A stretch of 31,624 nt of DNA from the IMG/VR virus record IMGVR_UViG_3300030109_002592, positions 1-31,624 of that record, one strand, 5' to 3'. Within the stretch, counting starts at the first letter, position 1; each line of letters opens with the position of its first letter. Under the pieces are notes generated by a model, which searched no databases, was not told the origin of the DNA, and was given only the letters and a program-made list of their open reading frames with translations. This stretch comes from a virus. Below, piece by piece: positions 2,352 to 29,557 of this stretch. The position numbers and the translations under genes are program-made.

Positions 2352-3866
2352 TTACTCCTGCTTTGTTAATTTTAAAATTTTTCCAAATGATTTCATAATT
2401 TTTAAATCATCTTTACCTGTGCCAGCTTCTGCTATGTAATCTTCAATAGCAGAGAATACTCCGTTTTCTTGTGCTCTTTTTAGGTCGTCACTACCAACAT
2501 CTTTATCTTGTGCGATAGACAACGTGTTACTAAATCCTGGTATTTTATTTCGTTCATCTTCTGATATATTTTCTAATACATTTAATAAAGATTTTCTATC
2601 ACCTGCACTTATAGCGTCATCAATTTGTTGTGCTTGTTCTGCTATTTGTCCACTATCTTCAACAAACTTTTCTAATTTTTCTATATTACCTTCAATGTCT
2701 TCTGCAAAAGTTTCTATATCTCCAACTATACTTTTAAATCCACCAGGTATTGGTAGAGCTGCAGCAATCTCGGAAGGTGTTTTTGTAGTCAATACATCTT
2801 TTTCTAAAAATTCTAAATTTGTTGTTGCTTCAACAAAGTTTTTTGCACCTTTTAATCCCTCTACAATATCTTTAACACCTGATGCTAAAGTAAGTGGATT
2901 TGATAACTTTGGAACACCAAACGTTAAACCTTGAAATACTTTTTGTATTCCCATTGTTTGTTTTAAAAATCCTGCTATATTTAAATCTGGAAATGGAATA
3001 GCATTTTCTTTTGTCTTGTTGATAATCTGTCCACCATTTTTACTAATGTCATTTGTTATTGTGTCAGCTTTAATATTAACACCACCATTAGTATTTTCAA
3101 TATCTACTTTACTACCTTTGATTAATACATTTCCTTCTGCAAAAATACCAATGTCATCTGATTTTGCATTTATTATAATTCTATCAGAGTCAAAGTTTAT
3201 TTGTGGCCCATTGTAATCTAAATTAATAAGTTCAGAAAATTTAAGTGTTGGTTCTGAATAATCAACCTTTTGATTTTGCGTCATCATAACTTGGCCCTCA
3301 CCATTCTGTATATTTGTTATTGGTGAATTAAGTGTTGGTTGATTACTACTCAATGTTATTGAGTTATCGAATCTACCTTGTATAATTGTATCACCCTCGT
3401 TTACGTCTGTTCTTATATTTTGCTCATCAATAAAAATTGAATTTCTTATATTATCAGGACTACTCGTACTACTAAGATTAGGTTGTTGTGAATTAATTCT
3501 TCTCGGTAAAGGATTTAAGTCTGAAAAATAATATCTTTTACCTACTGGGTTATTGTCAGGACCTATTGTTGCAAATACCTCTAATCCAAGAACTATTTCG
3601 TCAACTATTGGATATTGTATTACATTTTGATTTAGTGGTAAAAATGTTTTAAGTTCTGATGTGGGTTTGTCGTGTTCCGAAACACAATATCTACCCTCAA
3701 TACTCCCATCAGGATTAAAGCTTTTGACTTCAACTGGTTCTATTTCATATTGAAATGTTTCACCTAAAATTTGATTTATTAAAAGTTTAACATCGTCGGT
3801 GGTCATCACTTTACTACTTATAGGACTTGATTCTCCACCACTATCCTTCTTTTGTTGAAAGGCCAT
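2352..3866 (-). CDS. gp5: Baseplate hub/central spike protein, gp5-like without lysozyme
   Basis: A 504-residue protein with three visible parts. Residues about 45-140 look like the OB-fold found in gp5/VgrG proteins (EGRYCVSEHDKPTSEL, IQYPIVDEIVLGLEVF, GKRYYFSDLNPLPRR). Residues about 215-275 are short alternating strands ending in repeated I/V-x-I patterns (NFDSDRIIINAKSDDIGIF, GNVLIKGSKVDIENTNGGVNIKA), typical of the trimeric beta-helix needle. The C-terminal part is helical. There is no lysozyme domain between OB-fold and helix, unlike T4 gp5 itself; this arrangement is common in other T4-type phages. It would form the membrane-puncturing spike. The start overlaps the upstream stop by one base. 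Confidence 0.83.
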   Translation of the reverse strand: MAFQQKKDSGGESSPISSKVMTTDDVKLLINQILGETFQYEIEPVEVKSFNPDGSIEGRYCVSEHDKPTSELKTFLPLNQNVIQYPIVDEIVLGLEVFATIGPDNNPVGKRYYFSDLNPLPRRINSQQPNLSSTSSPDNIRNSIFIDEQNIRTDVNEGDTIIQGRFDNSITLSSNQPTLNSPITNIQNGEGQVMMTQNQKVDYSEPTLKFSELINLDYNGPQINFDSDRIIINAKSDDIGIFAEGNVLIKGSKVDIENTNGGVNIKADTITNDISKNGGQIINKTKENAIPFPDLNIAGFLKQTMGIQKVFQGLTFGVPKLSNPLTLASGVKDIVEGLKGAKNFVEATTNLEFLEKDVLTTKTPSEIAAALPIPGGFKSIVGDIETFAEDIEGNIEKLEKFVEDSGQIAEQAQQIDDAISAGDRKSLLNVLENISEDERNKIPGFSNTLSIAQDKDVGSDDLKRAQENGVFSAIEDYIAEAGTGKDDLKIMKSFGKILKLTKQE

Positions 3867-4255
3867 TAATTTTCCTTTTTAATACTTGACTCGATTTCGT
3901 CTTTCTTTATTTGTAACTCTTGAACATCTGTTTCTATTGCACTCATCAGTTGTTCTTTTTCTGCTTCTGATAAACCGAACTCATCTCCTGAATCCGATAC
4001 TCTTCCTTCTGCTGCTGTAATTCTTTGGACGATTGTTGCCAACTTAACAAGTTGTTCGTCGTTCTTAACATTGATTTCCAAATACTCTTTTAGCATAGGA
4101 ACTATTTGGACGGCTGTATCTCCGTCCTTGATAAATCCCACAACCTCTTTCATCAATACTTCTAATTGTTGTTTGTTGGTTTTGGAATTGTCATAGATGT
4201 CTTTGAAGACATCAGAAAGGGTTTTTCCCTCGAATATTTCATAGTCTTTTGCCAT
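3866..4255 (-). CDS. Unknown helical protein, first gene of the baseplate operon
   Basis: A 129-residue acidic protein predicted to be almost wholly helical. The C-terminal third (SEAEKEQLMSAIETDVQELQ followed by IKKDEIESSIKK) has heptad-like spacing compatible with a coiled coil. No enzyme motif or membrane segment is visible and I do not recognise a family. It is the promoter-proximal gene of the late operon that continues into the gp5-, gp25- and gp6-like genes, with which it overlaps by one base. The late motif TATAAATA lies about 49 bases upstream of the ATG. A structural or assembly role is inferred only from its position. Confidence 0.8.
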   Translation of the reverse strand: MAKDYEIFEGKTLSDVFKDIYDNSKTNKQQLEVLMKEVVGFIKDGDTAVQIVPMLKEYLEINVKNDEQLVKLATIVQRITAAEGRVSDSGDEFGLSEAEKEQLMSAIETDVQELQIKKDEIESSIKKEN

Positions 4256-5394: not shown

Positions 5395-5648
5395 TATAAA
5401 TCCTTTTCTGTTATTTCGTTTAATTCATCTACGGTTTCTTTAATTGCTGTAAACACTACACCGACTTCGTCGTCTGCTTCAAAGTTACCTTTATCATCAA
5501 TCTGTTTTAATGTTTCTTGTGTGTCAATTACACGTTGTGCATAATCTTCTACCCAAGTTTCCAATCGTTCAGTTTTTTTCGTTAAGTTAAATATAACATA
5601 ACTTTCAACCAAAGTCAATAGAATAAACAATATTAAAAAATAAATCAT
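5394..5648 (-). CDS. Small membrane-anchored coiled-coil protein
   Basis: An 84-residue protein with one strong N-terminal membrane segment (IYFLILFILLTLVESYVIF, residues 2-20), a basic stop-transfer (KKTERLE), and an acidic helical domain ending in a likely coiled coil (FTAIKETVDELNEITEKDL). The topology suggests a soluble C-terminal part held at the inner membrane. Its ATG overlaps the stop of the HD-hydrolase gene (ATGA), and its stop overlaps the sigma-factor start, so all three are translationally coupled. I do not recognise a family. A role in anchoring or phage-host membrane interaction would be guesswork. Confidence 0.75.
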   Translation of the reverse strand: MIYFLILFILLTLVESYVIFNLTKKTERLETWVEDYAQRVIDTQETLKQIDDKGNFEADDEVGVVFTAIKETVDELNEITEKDL

Positions 5649-6433
5649 TTCTTCGCCTCCCCAAATAGTTCGTTAAATATATCCTTAGCGTCTGTTGATT
5701 TAGTAAACTTTTCTTTTACTTCATTGTCAACTGCTGCTTTAATATTTGTTACTGACTTTTGAACCTTAGCAGATTCTTTCTTGTCTTCTCTGTGCCACTC
5801 ATCATATTCGGTGTGAGTAGCCATCATATCTGCTTGGTGTATAATGTAAGCAATGTTACTTTTTAATCTCCAAGCCGGATTATATCCTTTTAGATATTTT
5901 TCATTAGCGTCTTCATATAGTCCGTCAGCTAACTTCAACCCAAGGTATTCAAACTCAGACATTTCTATTCCATAATGTTGTAGAATAAATAATGACCTAT
6001 CCGTAACATTCATATATGACGACAAGTCATTATTATGTGTATAGATTTCACCCATATTCTTTACTCTCCAATCATTGTCTTGGATAACATAATAATCATT
6101 ACCCTCTAAGTCTCCAATCTTTCCTAAGTCGTGATGAAGAGCTGCAAATACTAATTCCTCATCTGTAAAATTAATCATAGCTCCATTTGACACCCAAACA
6201 TCTTTAATTTGTTTTGACATATTGATAACGTGTAATATGTGTTCTACATATCCACCCACCATAGCATTGTGAAATGCTTTTTTAGCACTTGCTGGTGCCA
6301 CGACCATTCTGTCCTCAAAGTCGTCATACATCTTGTTGAGTTTTTCTAATCTATCTCCACTAAATGTATTGTTGATAATTGTTCGTAAGTCTTTGTAATT
6401 ATCTGTTATTTGTTGTTCTGTTAATTGCTTCAT
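5645..6433 (-). CDS. HD-domain metal-dependent phosphohydrolase
   Basis: A 262-residue protein with the HD-superfamily signature. HNAMVGGYVEHILHVINMS (around residues 55-75) supplies the first His, FAALHHDLGKIGD (about 95-108) gives the HD dyad and glycine turn, and later acidic residues (HQADMMATH, near 200) supply the last metal ligand. Such enzymes hydrolyse phosphoester bonds in nucleotides or RNA; the substrate cannot be read from the sequence. In a phage, dNTP/NMP hydrolysis or destruction of a signalling nucleotide are both possible. The gene overlaps its neighbours on both sides by 4 bases and lies directly downstream of the glycosyltransferase, so it belongs to the 4669-10420 transcription unit. 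Confidence 0.85.
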   Translation of the reverse strand: MKQLTEQQITDNYKDLRTIINNTFSGDRLEKLNKMYDDFEDRMVVAPASAKKAFHNAMVGGYVEHILHVINMSKQIKDVWVSNGAMINFTDEELVFAALHHDLGKIGDLEGNDYYVIQDNDWRVKNMGEIYTHNNDLSSYMNVTDRSLFILQHYGIEMSEFEYLGLKLADGLYEDANEKYLKGYNPAWRLKSNIAYIIHQADMMATHTEYDEWHREDKKESAKVQKSVTNIKAAVDNEVKEKFTKSTDAKDIFNELFGEAKK

Positions 6434-9229: not shown

Positions 9230-10420
9230 TTATCTACCTATATCCTTTAAATATTTTTCTTTTGCTTCTTCCCACGAGATGTTAATCATTCCGGAATAGA
9301 ATAATTTCTCTGGTTTTATTTTATTTTGTTCTAATAATTTAGTATAACGATTTACTGCTTTACGCTTCCACCAACTATCAATGTATTCAATATCTCTATC
9401 AAACATATTTCTGATTTCCAATTGGTCCTCGTTGATTTCACTTCTTAGAAATTCTTTTCCGTTTTGATATATGTTTGCAAAGTAACAACCTCGTTTAAAT
9501 CCGTGTTCATACTTTGCTCGTTTAATATCTAACTCTTTATATATCATTTGAATAATCTTTTGTTTAATACCCGTTACTGGTTGTCCGTTTGCTCTTACAC
9601 CAACTTTACTATCATATTCTTCTCGTTTGTTATCTTTAATCCATTGGTGCCAAGTATCATAAAATGTATCATCTGGTTTCAAACTAATCTTACCTTTGGT
9701 TTCACCTAATGTTTTCCATTGTGGTATTCCATTATACATTGAGTGAATACCATATAAAGCAGTAGTGGATATACCAACTAATGTTTGTCCATATAGTTTC
9801 TTCCAAGTATCACGAACAACTTTTGATGTAACCATTTGTGCTACTAACTTACCACCCAACATATTGAAACCTAATGGTTGAACACAACATATCGTAGTTC
9901 CGATTGCAGTATGGTTTAGTTTTCCGTCTTGGAACTTGTTTTCTTTAGACCAACCAATCAACTCATCTCTAACACCTAATGAAGTTACATCACTACCTAA
10001 ACAAATCATACCTAACACTTTACCAGATACTTTATCCTTAACATAAAACTTTACATTACGACCTGGATTAGCTGTGAACTCCATTGAGTGAATTAGTCTT
10101 CTTGTGATAATCCAATCTTCGTTTTCTTTTGCATTACCTTGCGTAACTGGTTCGACGATTGGTTCTATTGAATTGATTTCTTGAATTGTTAATTCTTTAT
10201 TGTAAATGTCTGTTGGTTGCCAGATAGTCTTTTCTAATCTATCTATTGTGTCTGCCCTATCCATAAAGAATTGTGGGTCTTTATTGAACTCTTCCCACTT
10301 CTTCCATAAGACTGATTCTTGGACTGACATCTCTTTTAGAAAGTCCATATTGTCTATGAACTTTTGTTTCTCTGCTTGATAGTTAAACTCGGCTTCACCG
10401 AAAAAATTTTCAAAACTCAT
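9230..10420 (-). CDS. DruA-like (DUF4338) protein
   Basis: A 396-residue protein. Its middle part follows the order of motifs I know from the DruA/DUF4338 family: VSGKVLGMICLGSDV, then GVRDELIGWSKE (RDxxIGW), then a segment rich in G and L (FNMLGGKLVAQM), VRDTWKKLYGQTLVG, and SMYNGIPQWKTLGETKGK. DruA belongs to the Druantia anti-phage system; its biochemical activity is not something I can state. The N-terminal 100 and C-terminal 110 residues are extra. The gene has a good ribosome site (AAAAGG, 6 bases) and lies 35 bases behind an early-type promoter. An 8-residue mini-frame (10421-10447) fills that leader and ends immediately before the ATG (TAGATG). A phage copy could be a counter-defence or modification protein. 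Confidence 0.62.
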   Translation of the reverse strand: MSFENFFGEAEFNYQAEKQKFIDNMDFLKEMSVQESVLWKKWEEFNKDPQFFMDRADTIDRLEKTIWQPTDIYNKELTIQEINSIEPIVEPVTQGNAKENEDWIITRRLIHSMEFTANPGRNVKFYVKDKVSGKVLGMICLGSDVTSLGVRDELIGWSKENKFQDGKLNHTAIGTTICCVQPLGFNMLGGKLVAQMVTSKVVRDTWKKLYGQTLVGISTTALYGIHSMYNGIPQWKTLGETKGKISLKPDDTFYDTWHQWIKDNKREEYDSKVGVRANGQPVTGIKQKIIQMIYKELDIKRAKYEHGFKRGCYFANIYQNGKEFLRSEINEDQLEIRNMFDRDIEYIDSWWKRKAVNRYTKLLEQNKIKPEKLFYSGMINISWEEAKEKYLKDIGR

Positions 10421-21888: not shown

Positions 21889-22119
21889 TTATTTTTTTTC
21901 GTAACCCATAACTTCCATAGCTTTGAGTATCCCATTAATTATATCTTCAACATTGTTAGGCATAATCGATATACCTTTCTTGGTTGGTTTATATTCACCA
22001 GAGTTCTTATCCATATAATAAATACGAACATCTATAAACTTGTATCCTTCATATTCTTTTTCATATATACGATATACTTCTGATGAGTTCTTTTTAATTT
22101 GTGTTATTAAGTTTTCCAT
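21889..22119 (-). CDS. PC4-like single-stranded-DNA/transcription coactivator protein
   Basis: A 76-residue protein whose core FIDVRIYYMDKNSGEYKPTK followed by KGISIMPNNVEDIINGI matches the pattern of the PC4/p15 C-terminal domain (V-x-I-R-x-Y-Y-x-D ... G-x-x-x-P-x-x-K-G-I-S-L ... helix). PC4-fold proteins bind single-stranded or melted DNA as dimers, and phage T5 has a known relative. It could modulate transcription or replication here. Its ATG overlaps the stop of the DruA-like gene by one base (TAATG), so it is co-translated with that gene and the Mom-like gene. Confidence 0.8.
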   Translation of the reverse strand: MENLITQIKKNSSEVYRIYEKEYEGYKFIDVRIYYMDKNSGEYKPTKKGISIMPNNVEDIINGILKAMEVMGYEKK

Positions 22120-22709
22120 TATAATCCTTTGTAAAAAATTAGTTTCTTATTTTCGCCTGTCGGTTTGACAAATAATTCTTTTAGTTCTTCTTTATTATGC
22201 CACTTCATACTCGAAGACTTGTGTTCAGGTAATCCTGCAGTCTCTCCAATCATTTTCCAATTGTCTGCTTTGTAAACCGCACCATTGTTATCTCCACCCA
22301 CGAATGTTAATAAATGTTTTAAATCATCACCATACTTTTTATACCAAGCAGACTTACAATGTTGTCTAACTTGTTTTAGTATTTGAGTTCCTGCATTTTT
22401 AATCGTGTGTGGTTTCATACAAAATCTCCAATTGTTTGCGAACTCATTAAAGACATCTTTATATTCATATTTAGATAAACCTACTTGTGTTAACAAATCT
22501 TTTGGTGGTGGATATACTGATGAACCAATACCAACCATTCCAATTGGTTGTGGTATATTGAATTGATTAACAACTGAATCATCAAAGATTAACCAATCTA
22601 TTCTACGACCAACTGATACTGCACTTGGAACATAAGAGTGATACTCTTCGATAATAAACTGAACTAATTGTTTTTGATTATCGGTATGAACTTCTTCTAA
22701 GTATATCAT
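22119..22709 (-). CDS. DruA-like protein, compact form
   Basis: A 196-residue protein with the DruA/DUF4338 motif order: YHSYVPSAVSVGRRIDWLIF at the start, IGMVGIGSSVYPPPKDLL, then FANNWRFCM, NAGTQILKQVRQHCKSAWYK, KYGDDLKHLLTFVGGDNNGA and VYKADNWKMIGETAG. The NNWRF, G-x-x-Y-x-A-x-N-W and G-E-T-x-G elements are especially close to what I recall for that family. It is about half the size of the copy at 9230-10420, lacking its extra end domains. It overlaps the Mom-like gene by 4 bases (ATGA), which suggests that the two work together. Activity unknown; a DNA-modifying or counter-defence role is inferred. Confidence 0.7.
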   Translation of the reverse strand: MIYLEEVHTDNQKQLVQFIIEEYHSYVPSAVSVGRRIDWLIFDDSVVNQFNIPQPIGMVGIGSSVYPPPKDLLTQVGLSKYEYKDVFNEFANNWRFCMKPHTIKNAGTQILKQVRQHCKSAWYKKYGDDLKHLLTFVGGDNNGAVYKADNWKMIGETAGLPEHKSSSMKWHNKEELKELFVKPTGENKKLIFYKGL

Positions 22710-23449
22710 TGATTGACCTTTATCTTTATTACTTCTACATTTTTTATATCTTGTACTTTAGGATATGTTAATGCAGGATACTTCAATCCTTCTTTTGCTT
22801 TTTTGATTTCTGTTTTATTACCTAAGAAATAAACATATCTATGTTTTCTTAATTCTTTCTTTACCCAAAAATCTTTAGGCACTAAGTTACGAAGTTTCTC
22901 AATGTTGTTAGTTCCGTAATACGGGAAGATTGTTCTTCCGTGTTGCCACTCACCTTCTTCTTCCCACTTATATAACCAACTATCATTAGGTCTAATCTTA
23001 TTACCTTGATAAATCCAATTAGTTGCCTGATAAATAGTTCCGACGTGTCCGGCTTGCGGGTCGGCATATGATATTAATGCCTTGATATGTGGTTGGTTTT
23101 CTTTTAACCATTTGAATCCTTGACCGATTAAATATGATTCTATATTACTACCATAACCATCGTGTATAAATAACCTTACTAACTCATACACATTTTCTCT
23201 TGGTATCTCAGTTGATATAGAAGCGCCTGAGTGTCTACCGATTGGGTCACCATAACATATAACACCAATTAGTTTCTCGTCTTCCATATCAAAGAACTTA
23301 TGTTGTGTTCCATCTGAATAATATAATCCTAATGCCACACTACACTTAGTCCACTTTTGTGAGTAATGATTTTTTACAATCATATCTCTTGCTAACTTCC
23401 TATCTATTTCTCTGATAGATAGTTTGGTTGTGTCTAAGTATTTACTCAT
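22706..23449 (-). CDS. mom: Mom-like DNA-modification protein (GNAT fold)
   Basis: A 247-residue protein. The GNAT-type core runs from DMIVKNHYSQKWTKCSVALG through KLIGVICYGDPIGRHSGASI, ENVYELVRLFIHDGYGSNIE and ALISYADPQAGHVGTIYQAT to NWIYQGNK. The HY motif, E-L-x-R-L strand, S-Y-A-D-P and G-H-x-G-x-x-Y-x-A-x-N-W elements match the Mom family. In phage Mu, Mom converts adenine in DNA to a methylcarbamoyl-type adenine that blocks many restriction enzymes. The last 70 residues are an added lysine-rich part (KKELRKHRYVYFLGNKTEI). It overlaps the upstream membrane-protein gene by 8 bases and the DruA-like gene by 4. Confidence 0.83.
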   Translation of the reverse strand: MSKYLDTTKLSIREIDRKLARDMIVKNHYSQKWTKCSVALGLYYSDGTQHKFFDMEDEKLIGVICYGDPIGRHSGASISTEIPRENVYELVRLFIHDGYGSNIESYLIGQGFKWLKENQPHIKALISYADPQAGHVGTIYQATNWIYQGNKIRPNDSWLYKWEEEGEWQHGRTIFPYYGTNNIEKLRNLVPKDFWVKKELRKHRYVYFLGNKTEIKKAKEGLKYPALTYPKVQDIKNVEVIKIKVNQ

Positions 23450-27258: not shown

Positions 27259-28085
27259 TCATCTTCCTCTAATACTGCTCTACCAACCATATGCTCCCAA
27301 TCTCTATCCTCTCGAACTTGATTGTTTACATCTTCTACTGCTTCTAATAATCCGTATGTATCGAACTGATTAATGATAGCAGATAAATCTTTTGGAAAAC
27401 AATGTCCACCAAATCCAAAGTCTCCGTCAGGACCTGGCACTGCCCAATGTGATTTACCTAGCCTCTCATCATAAATAGCATACTCAACTACTTTGTCATA
27501 GTCGATACCTATTTGTTCACATACCGAATACATCTCATTAGCAAACGATACCTTAGTTGCTAAAAATGTGTTGGTAAAATACTTAACCATTTCTGCGTGT
27601 TTAGCACCTGTCTTGACAATAGTGGCTTTTGGAAACACCTTAGAATATACTTGTCTAAGTTTGTTTGTTCCTTTTCTATCACCACCTAAAATAATACGAC
27701 TTTGATTCTTAAAGTCATCCAAGAAGTTCTCTTCAGTTAAGAACTCTGGATTAAATATCACGGTAGAGTGTGTATACTCTTCGTTAATCCTATCAGTAGT
27801 GCCTGGTGGAATCGTTGACTTAATCACTATAATGTGGTCATCAGCTGTTTCGTTAATCTCACGAATAACTTCTTCTACAATACCTGTATAACAAGTTCCG
27901 TCTTTTCTCATTGGTGTCGGAACACATACAAATATAACTTTTGCTTCTTCTACCAAATCTGATATCTTACTATGTGTTGATTTTGCTAAATCAAACTTAT
28001 CATAAGTAAGAACATTGTAGTGGTCTTCAAAACCAAGTTTAATTGCAGTCCCAACATATCCTTGTCCTATAATTCCTATTTTCAT
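27255..28085 (-). CDS. Short UDP-glucose/UDP-ManNAc-type 6-dehydrogenase
   Basis: A 276-residue protein with the N-terminal NAD-binding Rossmann fold (MKIGIIGQGYVGTAIKLGF), VIFVCVPTPMRKDG, VIKSTIPPGTTDR, NPEFLTEENFLDDF, the central helical domain (AEMVKYFTNTFLATKVSFAN) and the catalytic cysteine in FGFGGHCFPKDLSA. Full-length family members have about 390-450 residues; the C-terminal UDP-sugar-binding domain is missing here, and the end is a clean stop coupled to the next gene. It may use a smaller or different substrate, or need a partner. It overlaps the carbamoyltransferase gene by 4 bases, so they likely serve one sugar pathway. Confidence 0.87.
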   Translation of the reverse strand: MKIGIIGQGYVGTAIKLGFEDHYNVLTYDKFDLAKSTHSKISDLVEEAKVIFVCVPTPMRKDGTCYTGIVEEVIREINETADDHIIVIKSTIPPGTTDRINEEYTHSTVIFNPEFLTEENFLDDFKNQSRIILGGDRKGTNKLRQVYSKVFPKATIVKTGAKHAEMVKYFTNTFLATKVSFANEMYSVCEQIGIDYDKVVEYAIYDERLGKSHWAVPGPDGDFGFGGHCFPKDLSAIINQFDTYGLLEAVEDVNNQVREDRDWEHMVGRAVLEEDE

Positions 28086-29557
28086 CTGTATACTTTAACT
28101 CCATATTTTTTTGTAAATTCTTCTACATCATTTTCGTCATTGACGATTGGTTGTCCTTTAATGTTTAGACTTGTGTTCAATATCATTGGACAACCTGTCT
28201 CTTTGTAAAACTCTTTGATTAATTTATAGTAGCCAGGATTATCTTCCTTACTTACGGTTTGAACTCTTGATGTATTATCTATGTGACATATCGCTGGATA
28301 TTTATCAGGATACTTACACTTTGCAACATACTGCATAAACTGAGACTTCTTGGTTGGCATATCGAATATCTCGTGAGCGTGTTCTTCCAATACACTTGGT
28401 GCAAATGGTCTGAACTCTTGTCTATTCTTAATCTTGTTCATCTTTTGTTTGATGTCTTTACCTCGTGGGTCTGCTAACAATGAACGATTACCGAGTGCTC
28501 TCGGCCCGAACTCTGCCCTACCATTAGCGACACCCACAAGATTTCCTTTTAATAATTCTTTTAATACTGGCTTAACGGGATACTTTCCTTTGATATCATA
28601 ACCTAAAAAAGCACTATCGAAATCAATGTGTTGTCCACCTACATATGCAGCACAACCTAATGACGAACCTGCGTCGCCGGGATTTGGTAGTATCCATAGA
28701 TTAGGATTCTCTTGAACAACTATTGAGTTAGCAACACAATTCAAGGCAACTCCACCACTATAACAAACATTAGTAGTTTCAGGAACTAATGTAGGTAGTT
28801 TAGCAAATATCTTTTGTATCTCTTCCTCACATACTATCTGAACATTATGTGCTACATCAAACTTCCACTCTGATGTTCCTTCGTCTGGATGAAAATCACT
28901 ATCCCAATCCATACAACCTTTATGTAGGTTTTGTTTTAGTAATTGTCTTAACTCATCTTGTAGTTCTTTACTTTCTCTACCCCAAGCTGCCATACCCATT
29001 AGGATGTATTCATCTTCTTGTGGTTTCAATCCTAATCGTTGGGTCATAGCTGAATACCATAGACCTAATGAATTAGGATAAGTTTGACTCCATCTCTTTT
29101 CTAACTTGTTTCCTTTGGCATACCAAATACTAATTGTATCCCACTCTCCAATCGCATCAATAACTACAACTGCACTTTCATCATATGGTGAAGTAAAGTA
29201 AGTAGAACTTGCGTGTGATAAGTGATGGTCTACATATTGGTCTATTCTTGGTTGTGAACCTTCAACAACACTTAATATTTCTGTTAAGTGGTTGAGTGGT
29301 AAATTCTTTTTTGTAAATACTTCTGAATATTGTCCTGCATATAATTGTCTTGACTTCTTTACATAAGGTCTTTCAAACCATACAACCTTTTTAGGAACTC
29401 CATAATCCCACATATCCATAAACATTTCTAAGTTTAAGTTTGGGTCATTCTTAATACCACTATATCTTTCTGCGTGTCCTGCCCATAGTATCTTACCATC
29501 CTCTATAAGTGTCATAGCGGCATCGTGGTTTAATGCGTTGATACCCAAGATTTTCAT
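28082..29557 (-). CDS. NodU/CmcH-family carbamoyltransferase
   Basis: A 491-residue protein. The N-terminal Kae1-like domain shows MKILGINALNHDAAMTLIED, the metal-binding YVDHHLSHASSTYF, AVVVIDAIGEWDTISIW, VCYSGGVALNCVANS and NPGDAGSSLGCAAY. The C-terminal YrdC-like domain shows GRAEFGPRALGNRSLLADPR, FRPFAPSVL and ILNTSLNIKGQPIV. These enzymes transfer a carbamoyl group from carbamoyl phosphate to a hydroxyl of a sugar, antibiotic or Nod factor. Homologues are common in marine T4-type phages; the substrate is unknown. It is coupled on both sides (ATGA overlaps) to a dehydrogenase and a possible barrel protein. Confidence 0.93.
   Translation of the reverse strand: MKILGINALNHDAAMTLIEDGKILWAGHAERYSGIKNDPNLNLEMFMDMWDYGVPKKVVWFERPYVKKSRQLYAGQYSEVFTKKNLPLNHLTEILSVVEGSQPRIDQYVDHHLSHASSTYFTSPYDESAVVVIDAIGEWDTISIWYAKGNKLEKRWSQTYPNSLGLWYSAMTQRLGLKPQEDEYILMGMAAWGRESKELQDELRQLLKQNLHKGCMDWDSDFHPDEGTSEWKFDVAHNVQIVCEEEIQKIFAKLPTLVPETTNVCYSGGVALNCVANSIVVQENPNLWILPNPGDAGSSLGCAAYVGGQHIDFDSAFLGYDIKGKYPVKPVLKELLKGNLVGVANGRAEFGPRALGNRSLLADPRGKDIKQKMNKIKNRQEFRPFAPSVLEEHAHEIFDMPTKKSQFMQYVAKCKYPDKYPAICHIDNTSRVQTVSKEDNPGYYKLIKEFYKETGCPMILNTSLNIKGQPIVNDENDVEEFTKKYGVKVYR

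What the first reader, a model, noticed from the sequence alone, without database searches (positions are those of the whole stretch)
22119..23449. Mom-like and DruA-like proteins encoded as an overlapping pair that share a motif
The Mom-like protein has G-T-I-Y-Q-A-T-N-W-I-Y-Q-G and the DruA-like protein G-A-V-Y-K-A-D-N-W-K-M-I-G at comparable positions. DruA proteins as I recall them share this G-x-x-Y-x-A-x-N-W-x-x-x-G element. The genes overlap by 4 bases. This suggests that DUF4338/DruA and Mom may be related folds and that both could handle DNA bases, which would bear on how Druantia works.
Basis: inference. Interest (0 to 1): 0.8.

Follow-up and report, generated by a model that had tools for sequence, protein, structure and literature searches.

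The report
Phage enzymes linking DruA and Mom
A marine phage carries, next to its Mom-type DNA-modifying enzyme, a small relative whose sequence lies between Mom and the bacterial defence protein DruA, so the unexplained DruA can now be tested as a possible DNA-modifying enzyme.

Summary
Two minus-strand genes, Mom (22706-23449) and a 196-residue protein ("Small", 22119-22709), overlap by 4 bases and share G-x-x-Y-x-A-x-N-W-x-x-x-G. In 3,159 ORFs from the window and related loci this motif occurs in 211, all Mom or Small proteins, and never in reversed or shuffled sequences. Profile searches tie Small to both families: 24 of 26 Small proteins match Pfam DruA, 18 match Mom, and no other acetyltransferase family appears. 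Small's model is a GNAT fold with Mu Mom as third-best PDB hit. Mom and DruA do not match each other directly; Small is the bridge.

That DUF4338 and Mom are both GNAT folds is already published. The pairing is recurrent but not fixed: the closest Small (88%) has no Mom beside it, whereas eleven other loci do, one with a DruA-Small-Mom-Mom-Mom array (L211).

Best reading: a DruA-Small-Mom lineage of GNATs, probably acting on DNA bases. Homology is well supported; Small's and DruA's chemistry is inferred.

The parts
22706..23449 (-). Mom gene (247 aa), homologue of phage Mu Mom
   Evidence: Pfam Mom 6.4e-49; phrog_1384 1.4e-54; PDB 8bv8 Mu Mom E 4.9e-13
22119..22709 (-). Small DruA/Mom intermediate GNAT gene (196 aa)
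   Evidence: Pfam DruA 2.2e-7, phrog Mom 2.2e-5; 26-member family; GNAT model with 8bv8 as third hit
22706..22709 (-). 4-base start/stop overlap between Mom (upstream) and Small
23003..23041 (-). Motif GTIYQATNWIYQG in Mom (residues 137-149)
   Evidence: conservation
22245..22283 (-). Motif GAVYKADNWKMIG in Small (residues 143-155)
   Evidence: G143, Y146, N150, W151 and G155 present in 26/26 Small proteins
23135..23137 (-). Mom Ser105, the column holding Ala in the solved Mu Mom chain (S124A inactive mutant)
   Evidence: S in 20/22, T in 1, A only in the Mu chain; PDB title. Mapping is an inference
22386..22388 (-). Small Thr108, aligned with Mom Ser105 (T in 24/26, S in 2/26)
9230..10420 (-).
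   Evidence: Pfam DruA 82 bits over positions 19-296 of 297; PADLOC DruA 4.4e-23; confident model, GNAT topology
21889..22119 (-). PC4-like single-stranded-DNA-binding domain protein, next gene downstream, overlapping Small by 1 base
   Evidence: Pfam PC4 1.7e-11

Best explanation
Mom, Small and DruA form one lineage inside the GNAT (acyl-CoA N-acyltransferase) superfamily, and this phage encodes one of each. Mom most likely adds its acyl-type group to adenine in the phage DNA, as Mu Mom does. Small, probably translated from the same message, most likely is a second nucleic-acid-directed GNAT working with Mom: either acting on another base or site, or carrying out a further step. It keeps the GNAT core, the conserved Tyr and Asn of the shared motif, and an Asn plus Thr/Ser at the place of Mom's essential Ser, but has Gly where Mom has an invariant Glu and Asp. 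The motif lies in the GNAT stretch after strand 5, where GNATs usually place the Tyr that serves the CoA leaving group (general knowledge of the superfamily). Shown: genes, overlap, homology links, fold of Small and DruA by prediction. Inferred: catalysis, substrate, partnership with Mom, and any DNA role of DruA.
For: Mom identity. Links Small-DruA and Small-Mom: 24/26 and 18/26 members match Pfam DruA and Mom, with no other acetyltransferase family. Single-profile hits: the Mom profile finds Small proteins at about 4e-5 and the DruA profile at about 5e-5; no reversed ORF is hit and no shuffled ORF below 1e-3. Profile-profile: Small-Mom probability 91-95%, Small-DruA 90-98%. A further intermediate, L211 3307-4008, has a DruA body (Pfam 60.6 bits) and the Small motif GSVYKADNW. 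Folds: GNAT topology in both models; Mu Mom 8bv8 third among PDB hits of Small. Context: Small abuts Mom in 11 other loci in several layouts, and MT-A70 or N6/N4 methylase genes in others. A full-length DruA is also found in 13/22 Mom records.
Against: Direct Mom-DruA profile match absent. The Small model is only moderately confident (mean pLDDT 69; motif loop 139-145 below 50), and its TM-score to Mom (0.55) is no better than to generic GNATs. The DruA model matches PDB GNATs only weakly (best E 1.2e-3) and Mom is not in the top 50. The pair is not fixed: L003 Small (88%) lies beside an S1/P1 nuclease, L022 Mom (82%) beside an unrelated gene, and 22 Mom records show no Small, though they are fragments. 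Small lacks the equivalents of Mom's invariant Glu104 and Asp130.
Confidence: 0.55

Rival explanations
1. Small is a non-catalytic partner of Mom: a degenerate GNAT that binds DNA or Mom and sets target site or timing rather than transferring a group itself.
For: Gly replaces Mom's invariant Glu104 and Asp130; recurring start/stop overlap with Mom; strongly conserved stretches GRRIDW and GSSVYPPPK.
Against: Motif Tyr and Asn, and Thr/Ser at the S124-type column, retained in 26/26; Small exists in many loci without nearby Mom.
Confidence: 0.22
2. The shared motif is just the general late-motif region of any GNAT; Small, Mom and DruA are no closer to each other than to other acetyltransferases and have unrelated substrates (for example Small and DruA acylate proteins).
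For: Foldseek lists 170 PDB chains at E<=1e-3 for Small, the listed ones nearly all GNATs, with Mom only one of them; PMC10853773 suggests that DUF4338-type GNATs might target proteins; no direct Mom-DruA profile match.
Against: None of Pfam's other acetyltransferase families is matched by any of the 26 Small proteins even at E 10, while DruA and Mom are; the exact motif is confined to Mom and Small among 3,159 ORFs; recurrent adjacency to DNA-modification genes.
Confidence: 0.13
3. The phage DruA-type proteins are counter-defence mimics that interfere with host Druantia, and their position near Mom is coincidental.
For: The phage encodes a DruA homologue and no other Druantia gene was recognised in the window; phages often carry defence-protein mimics (general knowledge).
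Against: Phage DruA is widespread with many conserved residues, and in 18 of 57 loci it abuts an HD phosphohydrolase gene, which fits nucleotide metabolism better than mimicry; Small is distinct from host DruA.
Confidence: 0.07

Closest known systems
Mom family (Pfam PF25680; phage Mu Mom, PDB 8bv8)
   Same: The 22706-23449 protein is a clear member (6.4e-49); Small shares the G-x-x-Y-x-A-x-N-W-x-x-x-G element, the Asn and a Ser/Thr at the S124-type column, and a GNAT fold.
   Different: Small scores below the curated Mom cut-off (13 versus 27.1 bits), has HSY in place of Mom's HY(S/T), and lacks the invariant Glu and Asp; its N-terminal part reads as DruA.
DruA / DUF4338 (Pfam PF14236; Druantia type I)
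   Same: Small passes the Pfam DruA cut-off (30.8 bits); its GRR-x-x-W and GMIGIGSSVY stretches match DruA's GRR-x-x-Y and GLIAIGDPVF; the 9230-10420 protein is a full-length DruA homologue.
   Different: Small covers only about 120 of 297 profile positions, lacks DruA's C-terminal part and GGKL motif, does not match PADLOC DruA, and no other Druantia gene was recognised nearby.
Phage DruA-like proteins reported by Phold (PMC12774648, Synechococcus phages such as S-PRM1)
   Same: Same family as the window's 9230-10420 protein; S-PRM1 is hit here at 3e-12.
   Different: The passages read there do not link them to Mom or describe the Small intermediate.
Predicted GNAT DNA-modification systems in jumbo phages (PMC7824862)
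   Same: GNAT enzymes, including Mom, predicted to acylate DNA bases.
   Different: Those have Mom fused to nucleases or a GNAT coupled with an ABC ATPase, not Small or DruA.

Membership tests
Mom (PF25680), for 22706-23449 | Full-length match above curated cut-off | tested here: met
   166.8 bits versus 27.1, positions 2-202 of 202
Mom (PF25680), for 22706-23449 | Conserved residues shared with Mu Mom (H28, Y29, N102, E104, D130, Y140) | tested here: met
   Invariant in 22 Mom sequences including Mu
Mom (PF25680), for 22706-23449 | Adenine modification of DNA | not testable with these tools
   Needs nucleoside mass spectrometry
Mom (PF25680), for Small 22119-22709 | Match above curated cut-off | tested here: not met
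   13 bits versus 27.1
DruA (PF14236), for Small 22119-22709 | Match above curated cut-off | tested here: met
   30.8 bits versus 27, but only profile positions 52-172 of 297
DruA (PF14236), for Small 22119-22709 | GGKL motif and DruA C-terminal region; PADLOC DruA match | tested here: not met
   AGTQIL at that place, protein ends early; no PADLOC hit for Small
DruA (PF14236), for 9230-10420 | Full-length match above cut-off and PADLOC DruA match | tested here: met
   82 bits, positions 19-296; PADLOC 4.4e-23; hhalign to bacterial DruA 99.6% over 261 columns
Druantia type I system | DruB, DruC, DruD and the DruE helicase beside DruA | tested here: inconclusive
   None seen among the window proteins scanned with Pfam and PHROGs; not every ORF was scanned, no dedicated DruB-E search was made, and the record is a fragment
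GNAT superfamily, for Small and 9230-10420 | GNAT strand-helix order and fold | tested here: met
   Predicted strand-helix order and nearly all listed PDB hits GNATs for Small; same core order for DruA, with weaker PDB matches

The most novel reading that the evidence does not exclude
DruA descends from the same line of nucleobase-modifying GNATs as Mom, so Druantia type I works by DruA acylating (or recognising acyl-modified) bases in DNA; phages hold the surviving intermediates, including whole arrays (DruA-Small-Mom-Mom-Mom in L211) that put several different acyl marks on their DNA.
Probability: 0.2. Interest if true: 0.85.

Novelty: new variant of a known kind. Interest (0 to 1): 0.58.

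Why it matters
DruA is the name-giving protein of Druantia and its activity was not explained in the papers found here. A protein family that sits between DruA and a DNA-base-modifying enzyme, found in phages beside that enzyme, gives a concrete and cheap hypothesis: DruA is a nucleic-acid-directed acyltransferase. Arrays of several Mom-type genes with Small and DruA also suggest phages with more than one acyl modification on their DNA.

Tried and rejected
Small against 50,697 phage records: no match at E 0.01, so no relative in a deposited phage was found. DruA query against genome contigs: no relative confirmed; bacterial DruA was taken from plasmid hits instead. Direct Mom-DruA profile comparison with broad alignments: 8%, so no direct homology claim. 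Idea that the pair is a fixed module: rejected, because L003, L007 and others have Small without Mom beside it and 22 Mom records show no Small (fragments). Idea that the exact motif is a DruA hallmark: rejected. A binomial estimate of Small-Mom adjacency (11 of 38 against an assumed 3-6% by chance) is only a guide: loci are related, the chance rate is a rough guess, and the tree needs only about three to four changes (L206, counted as 'none', is cut off just upstream of Small).

Full report
What is there. The window is a 31,624-base uncultivated virus fragment. Mom (22706-23449) and Small (22119-22709) lie on the minus strand and overlap by four bases; a PC4-domain gene follows, overlapping Small by one base. 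Mom is a clear Mom-family member and matches phage Mu Mom of PDB 8bv8. Small gets two Pfam hits, DruA over residues 4-129 and, weakly, Mom over residues 95-171, and a PHROGs Mom hit.

Is the shared motif real? G-x-x-Y-x-A-x-N-W-x-x-x-G occurs in 211 of 3,159 ORFs of the window and fetched loci, all Mom (156) or Small (55), and in none of the reversed or shuffled ORFs. In 26 Small proteins G143, Y146, N150, W151 and G155 are invariant; in Mom Y140 and N144 are invariant, W145 is W or F, and G149 mostly G. Mu Mom reads GRAGVVYQASNFDFIG at this place.

Where does Small belong? Among 26 family members, 24 match Pfam DruA and 18 match Mom; no other acetyltransferase family is matched even at E 10. 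Profiles built here from Mom and from phage DruA both find many Small proteins at 1e-3 to 1e-5; no reversed ORF is hit and no shuffled ORF passes 1e-3, the best shuffled score being 0.004 with the Mom profile. hhalign gives 91-95% for Small-Mom and 90-98% for Small-DruA, across most of the protein and with the motif Tyr, Trp and Gly in register. Mom and DruA do not match each other directly. The L211 protein 3307-4008 narrows the gap: it passes the DruA cut-off (60.6 bits), has DruA's RDKYIGW stretch, and carries the Small element GSVYKADNW.

Folds. The AlphaFold model of Small has GNAT order (pLDDT 69; the motif loop is poorly placed), and nearly all its listed PDB hits are GNATs, with Mu Mom third. 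The full-length DruA of the same window (9230-10420) gives a confident model (pLDDT 89) with a GNAT core; its PDB matches are mostly GNATs but weak, and Mom is not among the first 50. A known inactive mutant of Mu Mom is S124A (PDB title). The aligned column is Ser in 20 of 22 Mom sequences and Ala only in the solved chain, so it is taken to be window Ser105; Small has Thr or Ser there. Small has Gly at the places of Mom Glu104 and Asp130.

Context in other viruses. Among about forty Small loci, eleven have a Mom gene directly beside Small: same order with a 4-base overlap (L194), upstream with 14-23 base overlaps and a different Mom subfamily (L196, L197, L198, L208, L209, L210, L212, L213), or downstream (L192, L211). 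L211 is an array of DnaB-type helicase, DruA, Small and three Mom genes. On a tree of Small proteins the adjacency label needs about three to four changes, so it arose or was lost several times; the closest relative of the window's Small (L003, 88%) has no Mom beside it. Many Mom loci carry two Mom genes in tandem. Full-length DruA occurs in 13 of 22 Mom records and in 18 of 57 of its own loci is directly followed by an HD-hydrolase gene; in Pelagibacter phage Mosig it is followed by a MazG-domain gene.

What was known. DUF4338 was called a GNAT domain by PMC10853773, which suggested protein targets. Mom is a GNAT (PMC7824862). Phage DruA-like proteins were noted by Phold (PMC12774648). One cyanophage record already labels a DruA-family protein 'methylcarbamoylase mom'. 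I found no paper that joins DruA and Mom or describes the Small family; searches covered open-licence papers only.

Judgement. Homology of Small with both families is well supported; a DruA-Small-Mom lineage is the best reading. That Small and DruA modify bases is an inference from kinship and gene company. It is a good, testable lead for Druantia, not a demonstration.

Noticed in passing
window 9230-10420 (-): Full-length DruA homologue in the same phage fragment, with no other Druantia gene recognised in the window; relatives in Pelagibacter and Synechococcus phages.
   Followed up: yes
L211 1949-6547: Array of DnaB-type helicase, DruA-type protein, Small and three consecutive Mom genes.
   Followed up: partly
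L028-L101: Many viral loci carry two diverged Mom genes in tandem or close by (second copy about 40-50% identical to the window Mom).
   Followed up: no
window 28082-29557 (-): Carbamoyltransferase (phrog_1601, Pfam Carbam_trans N and C) of the family in which a 5-hydroxymethylcytosine carbamoyltransferase was shown (PMC8670742); no thymidylate-synthase-type gene was noticed among the proteins scanned.
   Followed up: no
L104-L160, beside the DruA gene: An HD-domain phosphohydrolase gene (window homologue 5645-6433) directly abuts or overlaps the DruA stop codon in 18 of 57 loci; in the window two genes lie between.
   Followed up: partly
L189 2728-3849 (Synechococcus phage S-SCSM2R): A DruA-family protein annotated as 'methylcarbamoylase mom' in the public record.
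   Followed up: no
window 21889-22119 (-): PC4-type single-stranded-DNA-binding protein gene overlapping the end of Small by one base.
   Followed up: no
BFVD hits of model m4928e9acc19b: Fold matches of phage DruA to unannotated giant-virus proteins (Faunusvirus, Yasminevirus, Dasosvirus).
   Followed up: no
L205 4001-4609: The Small gene is interrupted and reads as two adjacent pieces near an N6/N4 DNA methylase gene.
   Followed up: no
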